DNA of 64,000 nucleotides from Parabacteroides sp. FAFU027 (lineage in GTDB: Bacteria; Bacteroidota; Bacteroidia; Bacteroidales; UBA7332), in assembly GCF_022808675.1 (NCBI RefSeq), contig NZ_JAKZKV010000010.1, positions 62,001 to 126,000 of the forward strand, written 5' to 3'. Positions 14,376 through 63,117 of this stretch are shown here, piece after piece; the stretch's first letter is position 1, and every line of letters starts with the position of its first letter. A model generated the notes under the pieces. It was not told where the DNA came from and searched no databases. It saw only the letters and a list, made by a program, of their open reading frames with translations. Position numbers and translations under genes: made by a program.

Positions 14376-17300
14376 ATGAAGATGAAGTTCAGAATAATTT
14401 TAATCCTTTTCGCCATTACCGGTTTGCTATCGGTAAAAGCGCTCCCCTACAAGATAAATTATATAACAGCCGACAATGGATTGTCCCAGAATATGATTGA
14501 CCATATCTTCAGGGATAGCCGTGGTTTTATGTGGGTATCAACCTGGAATGGACTGGATCGGTATGACGGTTATGAATTTGTCCATTTTAACAGCCGGAAT
14601 GCAATAAACTCATTACGAAATGATAATGTGCATTGTGTGGAAGAAGACCCTCAGGGAAATCTTTGGATTGCTACAGAAACCGGGGTTGATTTTCTTGAAT
14701 ATCATTCCGGTAAGATTATCCATTCAGAGCAGAAGTTAGGTAAGAAAATGCCTTTTGACAATAAGTCAGTTACTTTTATCCAGAAAGATGAGAATGGTGA
14801 TTTATGGATTGGATATGATTCCGGACTAGCTTGTATTCATTTTACCAAAGACGGAAAAATTAATGCAGAAGAAGTTTATAGGAGTGAATCCTCAATCAAT
14901 GCATTGCTAATTCAAAACGGTAGTCTATACATCGGATACAACAATGGAGTATTCCGATTAGTCAAAGGCTCCAACGGTAAATATAACCGGGTGAATGCAG
15001 GTGAGTCACTCCGGCAGCTTCAACGCATTGTAAATACTTTTTTTTATGATAATGGAGTGATCTGGATCGGTACCACTTTAGGTCTTTACAAATATGATCC
15101 GACAACTGAAAACCTCATTGCTTACGTAGCTAAATCAGGTGACTCGAATTCATTATCCTCCAATTTTATAACCGATATCAAGAAAAATAAAGATGGCCAA
15201 TTATTAATCGGTACCCTCATAGGGTTGAATATTTATGATTACAGGACAGATTCTTTCTCTCATATTCTTTCTGAAAGTAATCAGGATGGTGTCTCGCTTA
15301 ATAACAACTTCGTCAATTGCATTTTTCTTGACCATCAGGCCGTATGGGTTGGTACGGAAAAAGGAGGAATAAATCTTCTGGTACCGGATCAAAAGATATT
15401 CACCAATTACGTTCATTCCCCATCAGACCCGGGAAGCGTTTCCAAAAATCCGGTGAATGCCATTTATGAAGATGAAGCCGGAACCCTATGGGTAGGAACC
15501 GTGGAAGGTGGTTTAAATGTGAGAAAAAAAGGGTCGACTGGTTTTATTCACTATTCTGCACAGGCCGGAAATCCGGGTACGTTGAGTCATAACACTGTCA
15601 GTTATATTTGCCGGGACTTCAAAGGCGATTATTGGTTTGCTACATGGGGTGGGGGGATTAACCGTATGAAGTTGTCTGATAAGGAAAATCCCAGATTTCA
15701 ACGATTTATGTACAATCCGGCTATTAAGACCGGAATTCAGAATGATTTTGTTGCTACAATGATCTCTGATTCTAAGAATCGGGGACTTTGGGTCGGTACG
15801 CGTGAAGGTCTCGACTTTATGGATATTGAATCGAATCGGTTTGTTCATGTACTGAGTTATCTGCCTGACAGTAAAAAGATTCGCTATAGTACTGGAATGT
15901 TTATTGATAGCAAAAACCGGTTGTGGATTGGTACCGGAAACGGATTGTTTTGCATTTACCTGAATAAGACAGATATTAAGCACAATAAAATAACTTACCG
16001 TCATTTCCACTATCTTTTATCGAATCCGTCCTCCCATCGTATTGAAAAGATCAACTGCATTCATCAATGTAAAAACGGAGAGCTGTGGTTTGGTAGTAAC
16101 GGTAATGGTTTGTACCGTTTGGATGAATCAGAGGGTCGGCTCACTTTTCATAATATAGATGAGCTAATGGGCTTATCTGATAATGTGATTTATGGAATCC
16201 TGGAAGATGAAACCGGGACTTTCTGGTTAAGTACTGATAAAGGATTGTGTGCATACAATCCTGATAAAAACAGTTTCCGTAGTTTCAATACTTCGGATGG
16301 ATTGCGTTCAAACCAGTTTTACTGGAATGCTTATTGCAAGGGGCATGATGGTAAAATGTATTTCGGACATGTGAGTGGATTGACTGAGTTTGATCCGCTT
16401 AAGACGACTCCGGTTGCAGCCCAGAATAGAGCTTCTATTACCCGTATTAAGGTTTTGAATGACGATATCTTCCCTGCCAATCTGAAACAATCGGGAGAGC
16501 ATCTCTTTTTTGAAGGCAACTTTTTATCACACATCGAGCTTAGAGAAGCGGATAAGGCTTTTAGCTTCGAGTTTTCAGCCTTGTCTTATATTTTTCCTGA
16601 GAAAATCAAATATGCCTATCGACTCAAAGGGTTTGATAACGAATGGACTGAGGTCTCTTCGGATCGCCGTTTTGCCAGTTATACAAACTTAAAGGCCGGA
16701 AAATATTCTTTTGAAGTTAAATGCACCAATCCTGACGGAACCTGGTCAACGGATATCACTTCTCTAAAGATTAGTGTTGTTCCTCCGTTTTATAAAACCT
16801 GGTGGTTCCTGATATTCGTGTTTGGACTCCTCATCTATTCAGCCTATAAATATTACGTATATCGTATTCAACAGCTGAAAAAACAAAAGATTCACCTGAA
16901 ACAGATGATCGATGAACGTACCCGTGAGATTGAGTATCAAAAAGAGGTGCTTGAGAATCAGGCCAAAGAGTTGCAGTTTACACTCAAAGAGTTGATTGAA
17001 CATCAGGATGAAATTTCGCGTCAGAATGAGGTGCTGACTCAGCAAAATGAGAAGATTACCCGTCAGAAAGAACAACTTGTGGATATGGCTAAAAAGGTAC
17101 AAGAGGCAACCTTGGATAAAATTGCCTTTTTTACCAATATCACCCATGAGTTTCGTACTCCGATCACCCTGATCATGGGACCGGTAGAACGTGCTCTGAA
17201 ATTGAGCCAGAATCCGGCAGTACAGGAACAACTCCAGATTGTACAACGCAATTCAAAGTTGTTGTTGTCGCTGATTAACCAGTTGATGGATTTCCGGAAA

Positions 17301-18799: not shown

Positions 18800-20764
18800 A
18801 TGAAACACAATCTCAAAAAGACGTGCCTCACGGCATCGCTTGCATTCTCTACATTGCTGGGTTTCCAGCAGGTAAATGCTCAGGAGTACAATGTACAGGT
18901 CGATACCAAAAAAGTGGGTTCGCCGATTCAGAAAACAATGTACGGTATCTTCTTCGAAGACATCAACTTCGGAGCTGATGGTGGTTTGTACGCCGAGTTG
19001 GTGAAAAACCGTTCGTTTGAATTCGATCACAACCTGGTCGGTTGGTTGCCTTTCGGAAACGTAAAAGTGATGAATACCAATCCTTGCTTTGACAAAAATC
19101 CGAACTATGTACAGATCAGCTACGACAAAGAGCTTACCGGAAGTGGCTTGGAAAATGAAGGCTTTGCCAAAGGTATGGGGATTAAAGCCGATGAGACTTA
19201 CAAATTCTCTGTATATGCCCGTTGTGTCGAAGCGCCGGTTAAGCTGAGAGTTCAATTGGTTAATTCGCATAGTGACATAATGGCATCTACAGAGGTGGAA
19301 TTTTCCGGTAAGGAATGGAAAAAGTATTCTGTAGAGCTGAAATCAAGATCAACTGATGCGCACAGCAAACTGCGTTTGACTTTGGTGAACAAAGGAGTGG
19401 TTGATTTGGATCATATCTCGCTTTTCCCTTCCAAAACATTCAAAGGACGTGAAAATGGTATGCGTGAAGACCTTGCTCAGGCGTTGGCTGACCTGCATCC
19501 CGGAATCTTCCGTTTCCCTGGCGGTTGTATCGTAGAGGGCACTAACTTGGCTACCCGTTATCAGTGGAAAAACACCATCGGAGCCGTTGAAAATCGCCCA
19601 ACCAACATCAACCGTTGGAATTATACTTTCGGAGATAAAAAATACTTCGATTACTATCAGTCATACGGTCTTGGTTTCTACGAATATTTCCAGTTAAGTG
19701 AAGATATTGGTGCAGAACCGCTTCCGGTTTTGAGCTGCGGACTTTCCTGCCAGTTTGAAAACCACGATCCTAACGAAAACTGTGCAGTAGATAAGCTGCA
19801 ACCTTTCATCCAGGATGCATTGGATTTGATCGAGTTTGCTAATGGTCCTTCAACTTCTAAATGGGGAAAAGTGCGTACCGATATGGGACACCCGGCGCCA
19901 TTTAACCTGAAATTCATCGCAATCGGTAACGAACAGTGGGGGCCACTTTATCCGGAACGTCTGGAGCCATTCCTCAAAGCGATTCGTGCTAAATACCCGA
20001 ACATCAATGTCATCGGAACTGCCGGTCCAAGTCCTGACGGTAAAGACTTTGATTTTGGCTGGAAAGAGATGAAACGACTGAAAGCTGATTTGGTAGATGA
20101 ACATTACTACAAAGATCCGCAGTGGTTCCTCGATAATGCTAAACGCTATGATAATTACGATCGCAAAGCTCCAAAAGTTTTTGCAGGAGAATACGCTTGC
20201 CATCCGAAAAACAAAAAGAACGACTTCGAGGGAGCTTTGTGCGAATCAGCTTTCATGACCGGATTTGAGCGTAATGCTGATGTGGTAAAAATGTGTACTT
20301 ATGCACCGTTGTTTGCTCATGTTGATGCATGGCAATGGCGCCCGGACCTTATCTGGTTCGATAACCTGAAGAGCGTTAAGAGTGTAAACTACTACGTACA
20401 GCAGCTTTACGGTATGAATGTTGGTACCAACGTATTGACCACTACATACAACAATGGACCTTTGGCTGGTCAGGACGGTCTTTACGCTTCTACAGCTTTG
20501 GATAAAAACAAAATGGAGATCATTGTGAAAATAGCCAATACGTCGAAAGAGGTTCGTAAAGTGAAATTCACGCTTAATGGTCTGAAAGCAGCTGAAAGAA
20601 AAGGTACGCACACCATTCTTACATCTGATAATATAGATGCTGAGAATACTTTGGATAAACCAAACACTGTAGTTCCGGCTACCAAAGAGATTTCTGTTTC
20701 AGGAAATGCTTTGCAGGTGGAATTGGCTCCTCAGTCATTCAACCTTTATACAATCAAGCTTTAA
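18800..20764 (+). CDS. Alpha-L-arabinofuranosidase, GH51
   Basis: This enzyme removes terminal arabinofuranosyl residues from arabinan-derived oligosaccharides. A signal peptide (residues 1-28, ending VNAQEY) directs it to the periplasm. A CBM4/9-like beta domain inserted near residues 80-215 (YKFSVYARC, VDLDHISLFPS) precedes the barrel motif LADLHPGIFRFPGGCIVEG. The predicted acid/base is Glu378 (AIGNEQWG) and the nucleophile Glu464 (FAGEYACH). The C-terminal beta domain ends SFNLYTIKL. The length of 654 aa fits the family. It is downstream of the HTCS gene and ends in its own terminator. Confidence 0.94.
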   Translation: MKHNLKKTCLTASLAFSTLLGFQQVNAQEYNVQVDTKKVGSPIQKTMYGIFFEDINFGADGGLYAELVKNRSFEFDHNLVGWLPFGNVKVMNTNPCFDKNPNYVQISYDKELTGSGLENEGFAKGMGIKADETYKFSVYARCVEAPVKLRVQLVNSHSDIMASTEVEFSGKEWKKYSVELKSRSTDAHSKLRLTLVNKGVVDLDHISLFPSKTFKGRENGMREDLAQALADLHPGIFRFPGGCIVEGTNLATRYQWKNTIGAVENRPTNINRWNYTFGDKKYFDYYQSYGLGFYEYFQLSEDIGAEPLPVLSCGLSCQFENHDPNENCAVDKLQPFIQDALDLIEFANGPSTSKWGKVRTDMGHPAPFNLKFIAIGNEQWGPLYPERLEPFLKAIRAKYPNINVIGTAGPSPDGKDFDFGWKEMKRLKADLVDEHYYKDPQWFLDNAKRYDNYDRKAPKVFAGEYACHPKNKKNDFEGALCESAFMTGFERNADVVKMCTYAPLFAHVDAWQWRPDLIWFDNLKSVKSVNYYVQQLYGMNVGTNVLTTTYNNGPLAGQDGLYASTALDKNKMEIIVKIANTSKEVRKVKFTLNGLKAAERKGTHTILTSDNIDAENTLDKPNTVVPATKEISVSGNALQVELAPQSFNLYTIKL

Positions 20765-20790: not shown

Positions 20791-20821
20791 GCCCGATTTG
20801 TGAATGCAGTCGGGCTTTTTT
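20791..20821 (+). terminator. Terminator of the GH51 gene
   Basis: GCCCGA (20791-20796) and TCGGGC (20810-20815) form a stem followed by six T. It lies immediately before the 21-bp repeat array. Confidence 0.85.
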
Positions 20822-21136
20822 CACTCCCATTGCTTAACCTTCGGATGTCATTGTTTGCCTGACGGAAGTCATTGTTTGAGTGACGGATGCCAATGTTTCA
20901 CTGACGGAAGTCATTGTTTGACCGTCGGATGCTATTGTTTAGGTGTCGTATGCCATTGTGTCATGTGCGAAGCCCACTGTGTAATTGATTTTTGCCATTG
21001 TGTCAGTGACGGAGGTCAATGTGCAACCGTTGCATGGGACTGTATCGATGACTTTAGTCACTGTGCGACTGTCGGAATGCATTGTACAGGTTACGCAGTC
21101 CATTGTTTAAGTTTCGCATGTGAATGTGATTATATA
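20822..21136. repeat. Degenerate tandem array, 15 units of exactly 21 bp
   Basis: Fifteen consecutive 21-bp units, with no insertion or deletion, fill the space between the GH51 terminator and the murA terminator. The consensus contains CATTGTTTGAGTGACGG. Positions 8, 10 and 11 of the unit (A-N-T-G) are the same in all 15 copies; other positions vary widely, most of all in the right half. One forward frame is open throughout and would read a heptad G-x-H-C-L-x-D with Cys in every copy. Its only ATG upstream (20804) lies inside the GH51 terminator, and there is no ribosome binding site, so I do not call a gene. Confidence 0.9.
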
Positions 21137-21142
21137 AAAGAA

Positions 21143-21187
21143 AAACCGCCTATCAGACAAGCAAGTCCGATAGGCGGTTTCTTTTTT
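21143..21187. terminator. Bidirectional terminator between the array and murA
   Basis: AAACCGCCTATC (21143-21154) pairs perfectly with GATAGGCGGTTT (21169-21180). A T-run follows on the plus strand and, read on the minus strand, another run follows for murA, whose stop is at 21204. Confidence 0.85.
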
Positions 21188-21203
21188 ATGTGGCACTTGA
21201 GTA

Positions 21204-22508
21204 TTACAATCGGGTAATCTTAGCACCCAATGCATTTAATCGTTTGTCAATATCCTGGTAACCACGGTCAATCTGGTCAATGTTATGGATGGTGCTGATG
21301 CCTTCAGCAGACATGGCAGCAATCAACAGTGCAATTCCTGCACGGATATCCGGTGAGGACATGGTGGCTGCACGAAGAGGATTCGTTTTAGCATTTCCGA
21401 TTACGGTAGCACGGTGCGGATCGCAAAGGATAATCTGAGCGCCCATGTCGATTAATTTATCTACGAAGAAGAGACGGCTTTCGAACATCTTCTGGTGAAT
21501 CAGCACGCTGCCTTTAGCCTGGGTAGCTACGACCAGAAATACGCTCAACAAGTCCGGTGTTAATCCCGGCCAGGGTGCATCGGCAACCGTCAGGATAGAA
21601 CCGTCGATAAAGGTATCAATCGTATAACAGTCCTGCTGAGGAATATGGATATCGTCACCTTGCAGTTCCATTTGAATACCCAGACGGCGGAAGCTGTCCG
21701 GAATCATGCCCAAATCAGGGTAGGAGACGTTTTTGATAGTCAGTTCAGAGCCGGTCATGGCAGCCATACCGATGAAGCTACCGATCTCAATCATATCAGG
21801 AAGAATCGTATGTTCACATCCCCACAACGATTCTACACCTTCGATGGTCAGCAGATTTGAGCCGATACCTTCGATATTGGCACCCATAGCATTCAGCATT
21901 TTGCAAAGCTGTTGCAGGTAAGGCTCACAGGCTGCATTGTAGATAGTGGTTTTACCTTCGGCCAATACAGCTGCCATCACGATGTTGGCAGTACCGGTTA
22001 CAGAAGCCTCATCGAGCAACATGTAAGTTCCTTTCAGCTTATCGGCTTTGATTTCGTATATCTGGCGGGTAGAATCGTAGTTAAAATCAGCTCCCAGTTT
22101 CTGGATACCAATGAAGTGGGTGTCCAGACGGCGACGGCCAATCTTGTCACCACCCGGTTTGGGGATAAGTGCTGAGCCGAAGCGGGCAACCAATGGTCCG
22201 ATAATCATGACCGAACCGCGCAATGAGGCACTTTTTTTTAGGAATTCATCTGATTTCAGGTAGTTGAGGTCAACGTTGTCTGCTTTGAAACTGTAGGTGT
22301 TTTCTCCCATTTTGGAGACTTTGACCCCCATTTCGCGTAACAGCTGAATCAGATTGTTGATATCGAGAATGTTCGGAATGTTATGGACGATCACCTCTTC
22401 CGGTGTCAGAAGGGTTGCACAAATAATCTGTAATGCTTCGTTTTTAGCTCCCTGAGGAGTAATGGAGCCGTGCAGACGGTGTCCGCCTTCAATAATAAAT
22501 GATCCCAT
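21204..22508 (-). CDS. murA: UDP-N-acetylglucosamine 1-carboxyvinyltransferase (MurA) with Asp at the catalytic Cys position
   Basis: The first committed step of peptidoglycan synthesis: transfer of enolpyruvate from PEP to UDP-GlcNAc in the cytoplasm. The protein of 434 aa has the EPSP-synthase fold with GAKNEALQI (substrate Lys) near the N-terminus and GPLVARFG before the active-site loop. The loop reads PKPGGDKIGRRRLDTH: Asp121 stands where E. coli MurA has Cys115. Cys-to-Asp enzymes are known to remain active and to resist fosfomycin in other phyla. The gene is followed by a strong terminator. Confidence 0.96.
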   Translation of the reverse strand: MGSFIIEGGHRLHGSITPQGAKNEALQIICATLLTPEEVIVHNIPNILDINNLIQLLREMGVKVSKMGENTYSFKADNVDLNYLKSDEFLKKSASLRGSVMIIGPLVARFGSALIPKPGGDKIGRRRLDTHFIGIQKLGADFNYDSTRQIYEIKADKLKGTYMLLDEASVTGTANIVMAAVLAEGKTTIYNAACEPYLQQLCKMLNAMGANIEGIGSNLLTIEGVESLWGCEHTILPDMIEIGSFIGMAAMTGSELTIKNVSYPDLGMIPDSFRRLGIQMELQGDDIHIPQQDCYTIDTFIDGSILTVADAPWPGLTPDLLSVFLVVATQAKGSVLIHQKMFESRLFFVDKLIDMGAQIILCDPHRATVIGNAKTNPLRAATMSSPDIRAGIALLIAAMSAEGISTIHNIDQIDRGYQDIDKRLNALGAKITRL

Positions 22509-30260: not shown

Positions 30261-30533
30261 CAGTCGTCATCCTTGCTCTTGCAGTCGTCATTCTTGCTCT
30301 TGCAGTCGTCGTCCTTGCTCTTGCAGTCGTCGTCCTTGCTCTTGCAGTCGTCATCCTTGCTCTTGCAGTCGTCATCCTTGCTCTTGCAGTTGTCATCCTT
30401 GCTCTTGCAGTCGTCATCCTTGCTCTTGCAGTCGTCGTCCTTGCTCTTGCAGTCGTCATCCTTGCTCTTGCAGTCGTCATTCTTGCTCTTGCAGTCGTCG
30501 TCCTTACTCATGCAGTCGTCGTCCGAGGTGTTG
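30261..30533. repeat. Tandem array, 13 units of exactly 21 bp, between cobU and cobT
   Basis: Thirteen units beginning CAGTCGTCATCCTTGCTC (plus strand) with no length change. Units 1-11 differ at only three sites; units 12 and 13 are more diverged and a partial copy follows at 30534. The order of variants in units 1-3 (A/C, A/T, G/C at unit positions 9 and 11) recurs in units 10-12, which points to block duplication. All six frames are open because the unit has no stop and its length is a multiple of three. Confidence 0.95.
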
Positions 30534-30563
30534 CAGTCTTTAATCAGGTGTGGTGAAAGCTCT

Positions 30564-40131: not shown

Positions 40132-40267
40132 AATAGCTGTGTTTTGGTAACAAGTAATGACTAGTCACAATGACAGCTTTCGGAATAAATGATTGCAACA
40201 AGGGCAAAAGAGGTAAATCAGTTTGCAGATGTTTCTCAGCTTTATCCTCGAAAGCTTTTGAACTAAC

Positions 40268-40440
40268 GTTGCCGTGGCAGGTCTTCTGACTTACTTCCGT
40301 TTGGGGCGGCCTTCCCGTCGCATGACAGTGGCGAAAGTTTTGCCCAAACGTTTGGTGAAGCTTACAGCAGCGGGACTGTTCAGGATTCTCACCTGATTCC
40401 CTTTTCATCCTCGACCGCGAATGCGGCTTCGGAACCAAAG
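40268..40440 (-). ncRNA. Cobalamin (AdoCbl/B12) riboswitch
   Basis: Read on the minus strand, the leader contains the conserved elements of the cobalamin riboswitch: GGGAATCAGGTGAGAATCC, ACAGTCCCGCTGCTGTAA, GCCACTG, GGGAAGGC and, at the 3' side, the B12 box region AGTCAGAAGACCTGCC. It is 137 nt upstream of the btuB start and immediately downstream of a matching promoter. It should switch off the btuB-btuG and following cob genes when cobalamin is plentiful. Confidence 0.97.
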
Positions 40441-40446
40441 CGGTTG

Positions 40447-40476
40447 CAAAGGTAAGGATTATTTTCGGAAATCAAA
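40447..40476 (-). promoter_or_regulatory. Promoter of the riboswitch-btuB operon
   Basis: On the minus strand TTTG (40476-40473) and TACCTTTG (40454-40447) are separated by 18 bp, a good Bacteroidetes -33/-7 pair. Transcription would start at about 40440, exactly at the edge of the riboswitch. Confidence 0.75.
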
Positions 40477-40564
40477 TTTGATGGTTTTAATTTGGAAATG
40501 AATCGGATTGTGAAGTATTATTTGGCTTCTAAATCATTAGCAGCAAATGATTTTAGTGAAATGA

Positions 40565-40974
40565 CTGGGTTGAAACAGGTTTTTATCCTTTAGAAAGTGA
40601 TTTTTGACCGTCGAAAATCATCCTATAAAATTATAGACCGGATTTCGGCGATTGAAATTTGTCCTATAAAATTATAGCGTTAAAATTGACCGTTGAATTT
40701 AACGCTATAATTTTATAGGCTTAAATAATTCCGTTGGAAATGCTCCTGTAATTTTATAGGCGACTTTCTGACGGTATATTTTGAGTCTGGAAAATTATAG
40801 AGGCCCTTCAAACGACAGAAAATGGCTCTATAATTTTATAAGATGGTTTTTAACCGCAAAGTTTATCTCTCAGAATTTACAGACTGCCATTCGATGGTTG
40901 AAAATTACATTCCAATTATTTAGAGCCGCATTATTCCTTCAACTTCCTGTTTTTAATCTTAAAATCACCCCTTG
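40565..40974. repeat. Degenerate tandem array, about 10 units of exactly 41 bp, between divergent promoters
   Basis: Each unit has two conserved parts. The first is GACCGTTGAAAAT-like, at 40606, 40647, 40688, 40729, 40770, 40811, 40852 and 40893, with weaker copies at 40565 and 40934. The second is a palindromic core CTATAAAATTATAG or its reverse complement, centred at 40629.5 and then every 41 bp to 40834.5, with weaker copies at 40875.5 and 40916.5. The step is exactly 41 bp each time. It is non-coding in all frames and lies between the btuB promoter and the promoter of the SpoIID-like gene. Confidence 0.9.
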
Positions 40975-52939: not shown

Positions 52940-53226
52940 TCTTGGGACGGGTTTAGGCTAAATCGAAACAGTAAAATTTATCTCTGGCAAATCCGGATGT
53001 CGGAATTTTTCGTTTTTTTCGTGCCTGGCTGATTCAGTTGTCTCCCCAAACGTTTTTTTTCGTGTCCGGGAAATTCCAAAGTCGGAAAAAAGAGTTTTTT
53101 TTGCCTCTGGCGCGCGCCAGCCTCAAAAAAAACTGTTTTTTGAGACCCGGAATCCAGCCAGAGTGGAAATTGACGGTTTATTTTGACTTCGGAATTTCCC
53201 AGGGGCAAAATTTACGGGAAAATTCC
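52940..53226. repeat. Degenerate tandem array, 7 units of exactly 41 bp
   Basis: Units start at 52940, 52981, 53022, 53063, 53104, 53145 and 53186. Each begins with a CTGG/CCGG-like motif, has a central CAGA/CGGA block, and most end in a run of six to eight T followed by CG or G (for example TTTTTTTCG). The step is exactly 41 bp. Copies are degenerate, and the first (52940) and last are the weakest. The region fills the gap between the DUF6261 start (52886) and the end of a lipoprotein gene (53246). I see no gene in it. Confidence 0.8.
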
Positions 53227-62383: not shown

Positions 62384-62385
62384 AG

Positions 62386-62458
<73 letters not shown>

Positions 62459-62557
62459 GTGTTTACGTGTGCAAAGGTAATACTTTTATTTTAAGTTGCA
62501 ACACCTTTGCGAAATATTTTCTGATTATGCTACCCCGAAGGATATTCTGGTATAAAA

Positions 62558-62584
62558 AAAGAGTATCTGAAACAGATACTCTTT
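62558..62584 (-). terminator. Terminator of tRNA copy 2 (repeated in later units)
   Basis: AAAGAGTATCTG pairs with CAGATACTCTTT and is followed on the minus strand by a T-run. The same sequence recurs at 62763-62789 and 62968-62994 for copies 3 and 4. Confidence 0.9.
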
Positions 62585-62587
62585 ACT

Positions 62588-62663
<76 letters not shown>

Positions 62664-62792
62664 ATGTTTACGTGTGCAAAGGTAATACTTTTATTTTAAG
62701 TTGCAACACCTTTGCAAAATATTTTCTGATTATGCTACCCCGAAGGATATTCTGGTATAAAAAAAGAGTATCTGAAACAGATACTCTTTACT

Positions 62793-62868
<76 letters not shown>

Positions 62869-62997
62869 ATGTTTACGTGTGCAAAGGTAATACTTTTATT
62901 TTAAGTTGCAACACCTTTGCAAAATATTTTCTGATTATGCTACCCCGAAGGATATTCTGGTATAAAAAAAGAGTATCTGAAACAGATACTCTTTACT

Positions 62998-63073
<76 letters not shown>

Positions 63074-63086
63074 ATGTTTACGTGTG

Positions 63087-63117
63087 CAAAAGTAGTGCTT
63101 TTGTTTGATCTGACAAA
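63087..63117 (-). promoter_or_regulatory. Promoter of tRNA copy 4
   Basis: TTTG (63117-63114) and TACTTTTG (63094-63087) with a 19-bp spacer match the Bacteroidetes -33/-7 consensus in full. Confidence 0.85.

What the first reader, a model, noticed from the sequence alone, without database searches (positions are those of the whole stretch)
20822..21136. 15 x 21-bp degenerate array between two terminators, with one stop-free Cys/His-rich frame
The unit core A-N-T-G is invariant in 15 of 15 copies. One frame (heptad G-x-H-C-L-x-D) stays open over all units, Cys is kept even where TGT becomes TGC, and about six stops would be expected from roughly 96 changes if mutations were random (my rough estimate with uniform substitution). 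The array is sealed between the GH51 and murA terminators and has no start site, so either a DNA-level constraint or a cryptic small protein must explain this.
Basis: partly seen in the sequence, partly recalled or inferred. Interest (0 to 1): 0.7.

Follow-up and report, generated by a model that had tools for sequence, protein, structure and literature searches.

The report
Genome-wide 21-bp helically phased intergenic arrays
The "Cys/His-rich" stretch is not a gene but one of roughly a hundred non-coding repeat arrays between the genes of this Bacteroidales bacterium; they differ in sequence, but nearly all keep copies exactly 21 bp (two DNA turns) apart, which suggests that the spacing itself matters.

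Summary
Fifteen 21-bp units lie at 20822-21136, A-N-T-G is invariant in 15/15, and one frame is stop-free. The coding reading fails: column shuffles expect 1.6 stops, not six (P(no stop) = 0.12); the orthologous array in a congener (G002) has two in-frame stops; several sister arrays have no open frame; and diversity is equal at codon positions 1, 2 and 3.

The array is one of a genome-wide class. In 0.68 Mb scanned without a motif, lag 21 gives 19 arrays and no other primary lag more than 5; extrapolated, about 100 per genome. All checked arrays are intergenic, with any flanking-gene orientation. Unit sequences differ widely between arrays, yet 27 arrays hold 2 off-register indels against 2017 substitution-type departures (other intergenic DNA: 35 per 417). 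Most orthologous arrays change length by 0 or whole units (+1, +5, +8). Columns conserved within an array diverge 3.1% between species, variable columns 13.9%, other intergenic DNA 5.7%.

Best reading: DNA-level repeats with one constrained core per two helical turns, probably a one-face platform for cooperative protein binding, with units turned over by recombination. Spacing constraint is well supported; the binding protein is inferred. No RNA structure or tuned curvature was found.

The parts
20822..21136 (+). degenerate array of 15 x 21 bp, consensus about GGATGCCATTGTTTGACTGAC, core CANTGT; non-coding
   Evidence: member of the genome-wide set
20791..20821 (+). intrinsic terminator of the GH51 gene (GCCCGA-loop-TCGGGC-T6), directly abutting the array; its loop holds the ATG of the spurious ORF
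   Evidence: read from the sequence
20804..21217 (+). 137-aa ORF through the array; spurious (no Pfam match, stops in the G002 ortholog)
21141..21182 (-). terminator of murA at the other end of the array
18800..20764 (+). flanking GH51 alpha-L-arabinofuranosidase gene (context)
21204..22508 (-). flanking murA (EPSP synthase family) gene (context)
30261..30538 (+). second 21-bp array of the window (13 units of CAGTCGTCATCCTTGCTCTTG, 92% alike); 18 units in G002, conserved part TTGCAGTCGTC and a variable part

Best explanation
The feature is a non-coding intergenic tandem array, one of roughly a hundred in this genome. Each array repeats a unit at exactly 21 bp, two turns of B-DNA, so a short core (here CANTGT) recurs on the same face of the helix. 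Units are duplicated, lost and shuffled as whole 21-bp blocks by recombination or slippage. Selection keeps the spacing and, more weakly, the core, and tolerates change elsewhere. The most likely function is a platform on which a DNA-binding protein (nucleoid-type or otherwise cooperative) assembles along one face between genes. Shown: the class, the exact period, the near absence of indels, unit-wise length change, slower core and faster variable columns, non-coding status. Inferred: the protein, its binding, and any effect on chromosome or transcription.
For: Motif-free scan of 680 kb: 19 arrays at lag 21, at most 5 at any other lag outside multiples of 21. Noncoding fundamental periods in 1.08 Mb: 21 (21 arrays), 11 (11), 41-44 (8), 8 (8, weak), 23 (3), others single; 3 arrays in total after shuffling. 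Four CANTG cores at 21-bp steps: 89 hits per strand against 0 for the reversed pattern in G000; 41 against 0 in G002. All inspected arrays are intergenic, overlapped only by short ORFs that the arrays themselves make or, for the second window array, by an over-extended ORF start, with 18 tandem, 6 divergent and 5 convergent neighbours against 105/45/25 in the background. Indels: 2 per 2017 departures in 27 arrays against 35 per 417 in other intergenic DNA; if the intergenic ratio held, about 100 of 150 simulated indels would be recovered and 1 is seen. Length change G000 to G002: 0 (4 arrays), +21, +105, +168; three more lie within 2 bp of a multiple of 21. Column divergence: 20/648 conserved, 89/641 variable (P = 9e-13); four arrays without length change 11/344 against 33/345 (P = 9e-4); conserved columns below intergenic 417/7261 (P = 0.003). 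Coding excluded.
Against: No binding protein is identified, and cores differ between arrays, so one sequence-specific binder cannot serve all of them. Exchange among units produces changes only at columns that already vary, which explains part of the conserved/variable contrast without selection. Departures from consensus are not independent events, so the indel depletion is overstated (still extreme if halved). The profiles used to count indels were trained in register. About a third of the arrays have palindromic units and the rest do not, so the class may be mixed. In the window array the 3' half is not alignable above about 0.6-0.7 with its G002 ortholog. Array positions do not appear to be shared with the more distant congener G001 where synteny could be followed.
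Confidence: 0.45

Rival explanations
1. Neutral minisatellites: a lineage-specific process (slippage or recombination) makes 21-bp duplications, and exchange between units keeps the register; the arrays have no function.
For: Whole-unit gains and losses, including a recent multi-unit duplication inside the G002 window array; families dispersed over many loci; the 3' half of the window array resembles other arrays of the genome more than its G002 ortholog; variable columns diverge faster than intergenic DNA.
Against: Ordinary mutation should add off-register indels at about 8 per 100 substitutions; 2 are seen against an expected 85-169. Conserved columns diverge less than intergenic DNA (P = 0.003). 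One array (L180) differs by 10 in 252 bp while its flanks differ by 53 in 600.
Confidence: 0.33
2. Intrinsic DNA curvature or supercoil localisation: any feature repeated every 21 bp bends in phase, and the arrays act as bent DNA.
For: Fundamental periods cluster at 11, 21 and 41-44 bp, near multiples of the helical repeat; helical-period sequence bias is known in bacterial genomes (PMC1242344, PMC4132750).
Against: Column order gives no more 10.5-bp roll or wedge power than permuted columns (mean z -0.29 and 0.23, s.e. 0.17; parameter tables from memory). Only 11 arrays in the scan had the 11-bp period, and those inspected are AT-rich and look different.
Confidence: 0.1
3. Structured RNA or transcription-end element: the array is transcribed and works as an RNA.
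For: The window array lies between two terminators; about a third of the arrays have palindromic units.
Against: Neither strand folds better than shuffles (z -0.23 and -0.03); no Rfam match at the array; arrays occur with every neighbour orientation; promoter-like sites are at chance level.
Confidence: 0.06
4. Cryptic small Cys/His-rich heptad-repeat protein.
For: One frame is open over 15 units and an ATG exists at 20804; over 27 arrays there are more open frames than column shuffles give (20 against 13).
Against: Two in-frame TAA in the G002 ortholog; arrays with no open frame; no codon-position signal; shuffles are too strict a null, since several control triplet sets also show excess (z up to 2.6 against 3.7 for stops); no Pfam match.
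Confidence: 0.02

Closest known systems
Bacterial minisatellites / VNTR loci
   Same: Head-to-tail units of about 20 bp, intergenic, copy number differs between relatives by whole units
   Different: Many unit families share one exact period within a genome; copies are only about 65-80% alike yet almost free of off-register indels; about 100 arrays per genome (extrapolated)
Small dispersed repeats of cyanobacteria (Elhai et al. 2008, cited in PMC2884548)
   Different: Not tested for homology; here the constant is the 21-bp period, and unit sequence varies between arrays
Helical-period sequence bias of prokaryotic genomes ('class A flexible patterns' PMC1242344; Atzinger and Lawrence PMC7537859)
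   Same: Selection or bias for sequence features repeated at the helical period; PMC7537859 reports periodic motifs that do not impart bending
   Different: Those are weak statistical biases across genes and genomes; these are discrete 100-480 bp intergenic arrays with strict register
Cooperative direct-repeat binding, e.g. BldC of Streptomyces (PMC5859096)
   Same: A way of working: a small protein multimerises along head-to-tail repeats on DNA
   Different: No BldC-like protein or site is shown here; analogy of mechanism only

Membership tests
Bacterial minisatellite / VNTR | tandem units of about 10-100 bp | tested here: met
   21 bp
Bacterial minisatellite / VNTR | copy number varies by whole units between relatives | tested here: met
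   +1, +5, +8 units between G000 and G002
Bacterial minisatellite / VNTR | copies near-identical (one minisatellite survey used at least 90%, PMC2884548) | tested here: not met
   most arrays 62-80% by TRF; the second window array (92%) meets it
Protein-coding repeat gene | frame kept open in relatives | tested here: not met
   two in-frame TAA in G002
Protein-coding repeat gene | variation concentrated at third codon positions | tested here: not met
   0.394/0.384/0.373
CRISPR array | near-identical repeats of about 23-50 bp separated by unrelated spacers | tested here: not met
   one continuous degenerate 21-bp unit
REP/BIME palindromic elements | palindromic unit | tested here: not met
   window array dyad z = -0.7, P = 0.72; about a third of other arrays are palindromic
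Structured RNA family (Rfam) | match to a covariance model or folding better than shuffles | tested here: not met
Protein-bound direct-repeat platform (iterons, plasmid centromeres, BldC sites) | direct repeats in helical phase with a conserved core | tested here: met
Protein-bound direct-repeat platform (iterons, plasmid centromeres, BldC sites) | cognate DNA-binding protein | not testable with these tools
   no binding data

The most novel reading that the evidence does not exclude
Some Bacteroidales chromosomes carry a dispersed, helically phased set of intergenic binding platforms in which the period (21 bp here; degenerate 22-bp arrays were seen in several Bacteroides and Parabacteroides contigs) is conserved rather than the sequence. 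A protein that reads spacing more than sequence would organise the chromosome or insulate neighbouring transcription units.
Probability: 0.25. Interest if true: 0.85.

Novelty: new variant of a known kind. Interest (0 to 1): 0.58.

Why it matters
Degenerate tandem arrays that hold an exact two-turn register while their sequence changes, in many unrelated unit families of one genome, are not what neutral minisatellite decay predicts. If spacing is under selection, the arrays mark an undescribed DNA-level organiser in Bacteroidales, testable by deletion, re-spacing and DNA pull-down. It also warns annotators: such arrays readily produce stop-free frames of 100 codons or more that look like repeat proteins.

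Tried and rejected
Coding: stops in ortholog and sisters, codon-position test, control triplet sets. RNA structure. Intrinsic curvature by column permutation. General palindromy: only about a third of the arrays. Link to convergent genes or terminators: none. Spread by plasmid or phage: no match in either collection. An apparent excess of array indels in blastn alignments (31) was traced at least largely to misalignment of expanded units in the second window array, whose G002 copy is in perfect 21-bp register; the rest was not itemised. Literature: eight searches found no description of 21-bp intergenic arrays in Bacteroidales; the library lacks most subscription papers, and I recall, unverified, that 22-bp direct repeats were reported in Porphyromonas gingivalis. 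Naming the organism: murA places it in Bacteroidales without a firm family.

Full report
Observation. The array is at the stated place: 15 units of 21 bp, 20822-21136, with A, T and G of A-N-T-G invariant and the following T at 14/15. Three invariant columns at 69% mean identity to consensus is unlikely by chance under a homogeneous model (P = 6e-5). One frame is stop-free, but column-preserving shuffles expect only 1.6 stops there and give none in 12% of trials. An in-frame ATG exists at 20804, inside the GH51 terminator loop.

Not a protein. The closest relative with a complete ortholog, G002 of the same genus, carries the array at the same place between GH51 and murA. The last 160 bp of GH51 are identical, units 1-6 are about 86-93% alike in 42-bp pieces, and the 3' half is only about 0.57-0.71 alike. 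The GxHCLxD frame has two TAA codons there. Among 27 arrays several have stops in all six frames. More arrays have an open frame than column shuffles predict (20 against 13), but this null is too strict because units share ancestry, and control triplet sets also exceed it (z up to 2.6 against 3.7 for stops). Codon positions 1, 2 and 3 vary equally. The ORF has no Pfam match.

A genome-wide class. A pattern of four CANTG cores at 21-bp steps has 89 hits per strand in the own genome with one mismatch allowed and none for the reversed control; without mismatch, 44 in G000, 41 in G002, 1 in G001, and none in most other Bacteroidales tested, apart from a few with ordinary homogeneous repeats. Tandem Repeats Finder, then a motif-free lag scan, show that the motif is not the point. 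In 680 kb, lag 21 gives 19 arrays while other lags outside 42 and 63 give 0 to 5. Unit sequences differ widely, e.g. GTCCCAAGTAGGACAGCTGTT, GTGTACACTGTTGCGGGAAAA, TCGGTCGCAGCTTAATTCGGG, AGAAATGCGAGAGAGTCGCGC. With 400 kb more, noncoding fundamental periods are 21 (21 arrays), 11 (11), 41-44 (8), 8 (8, near threshold), 23 (3) and singles; block-shuffled sequence gives 3 in all. This is about 20 arrays of 21 bp per Mb, so about 100 in 4.9 Mb by extrapolation. The sampled parts of G001 and G003 also have lag-21 arrays, and degenerate 22-bp arrays occur in contigs named Bacteroides ndongoniae, Parabacteroides acidifaciens, Candidatus Bacteroides merdavium and two Bacteroidaceae genomes. The arrays are intergenic and indifferent to gene orientation. 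Families recur at several loci.

Evolution. In 27 arrays (321 units) with 2017 departures from consensus a cyclic-profile alignment finds 2 indels. Intergenic DNA outside arrays shows 35 indels per 417 substitutions between G000 and G002, coding DNA 39 per 4185. Simulated indels at the intergenic rate would mostly be recovered (about 100 of 150). A raw blastn count gave 31 non-unit indels in arrays. I traced at least the main contributor to misalignment of the expanded second window array, whose G002 copy is in perfect register with 18 units against 13, but did not itemise every gap. Length differences between orthologous arrays are 0, 0, 0, 0, +21, +105 and +168; three more are -1, -19 and -107, within 2 bp of a multiple of 21, and the window locus differs by 49 because its murA-side flank also changed. 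In aligned orthologous units the seven most conserved columns differ at 3.1%, the seven most variable at 13.9%, other intergenic DNA at 5.7%. Exchange among units explains part of this contrast, but the shortfall of conserved columns against intergenic DNA (P = 0.003) suggests constraint. Whole arrays can also change: next to one conserved gene G000 and G002 carry arrays of unrelated units within a replaced stretch.

Mechanism. Exact two-turn spacing, tolerance of sequence change and a core per unit fit a surface on which proteins line up on one face of the helix. Intrinsic curvature is not tuned, RNA folding is at shuffle level, and palindromy is limited to about a third of the arrays. The binder is unknown; different cores between arrays speak against one strictly sequence-specific protein. 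A neutral account with lineage-specific 21-bp duplication is the main rival and fails chiefly on the missing indels.

Known context. Helical-period bias is known genome-wide (PMC1242344, PMC4132750, PMC7537859); minisatellites and small dispersed repeats of about 20 bp are known (PMC2884548); cooperative binding to direct repeats is known (PMC5859096). I found no description of this class in eight searches of the held library, which lacks most subscription papers.

Noticed in passing
window 62385-63106: Four tRNA-Met(CAT) genes in a 205-bp tandem array, 98% alike.
   Followed up: no
window 40552-40829 and 52976-53219: Degenerate arrays with 41-bp period (about four helical turns); the first lies next to a cobalamin riboswitch (40259-40454, - strand).
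   Followed up: partly
L160:17438-17585, L165:2985-3178, L185:8319-8465, L189:2559-2726, L190:9176-9271: AT-rich intergenic stretches with 11-bp period, a second helical class in the same genome.
   Followed up: partly
L163 about 14612-14768 and 16953-16988, with many matches in G002: Other dispersed repeats, about 140 bp and about 35 bp (matching on both strands, so palindromic), in many copies in G002.
   Followed up: no
L061:1774-1976, L063:1772-1918, L074:7783-7935, L088:8981-9156, L103:4467-4620: Degenerate 22-bp arrays in other Bacteroidales; the period may be fixed per lineage.
   Followed up: partly
L164:6838-7001: His-rich low-complexity stretch with 18-30 bp periods, apparently coding.
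   Followed up: no
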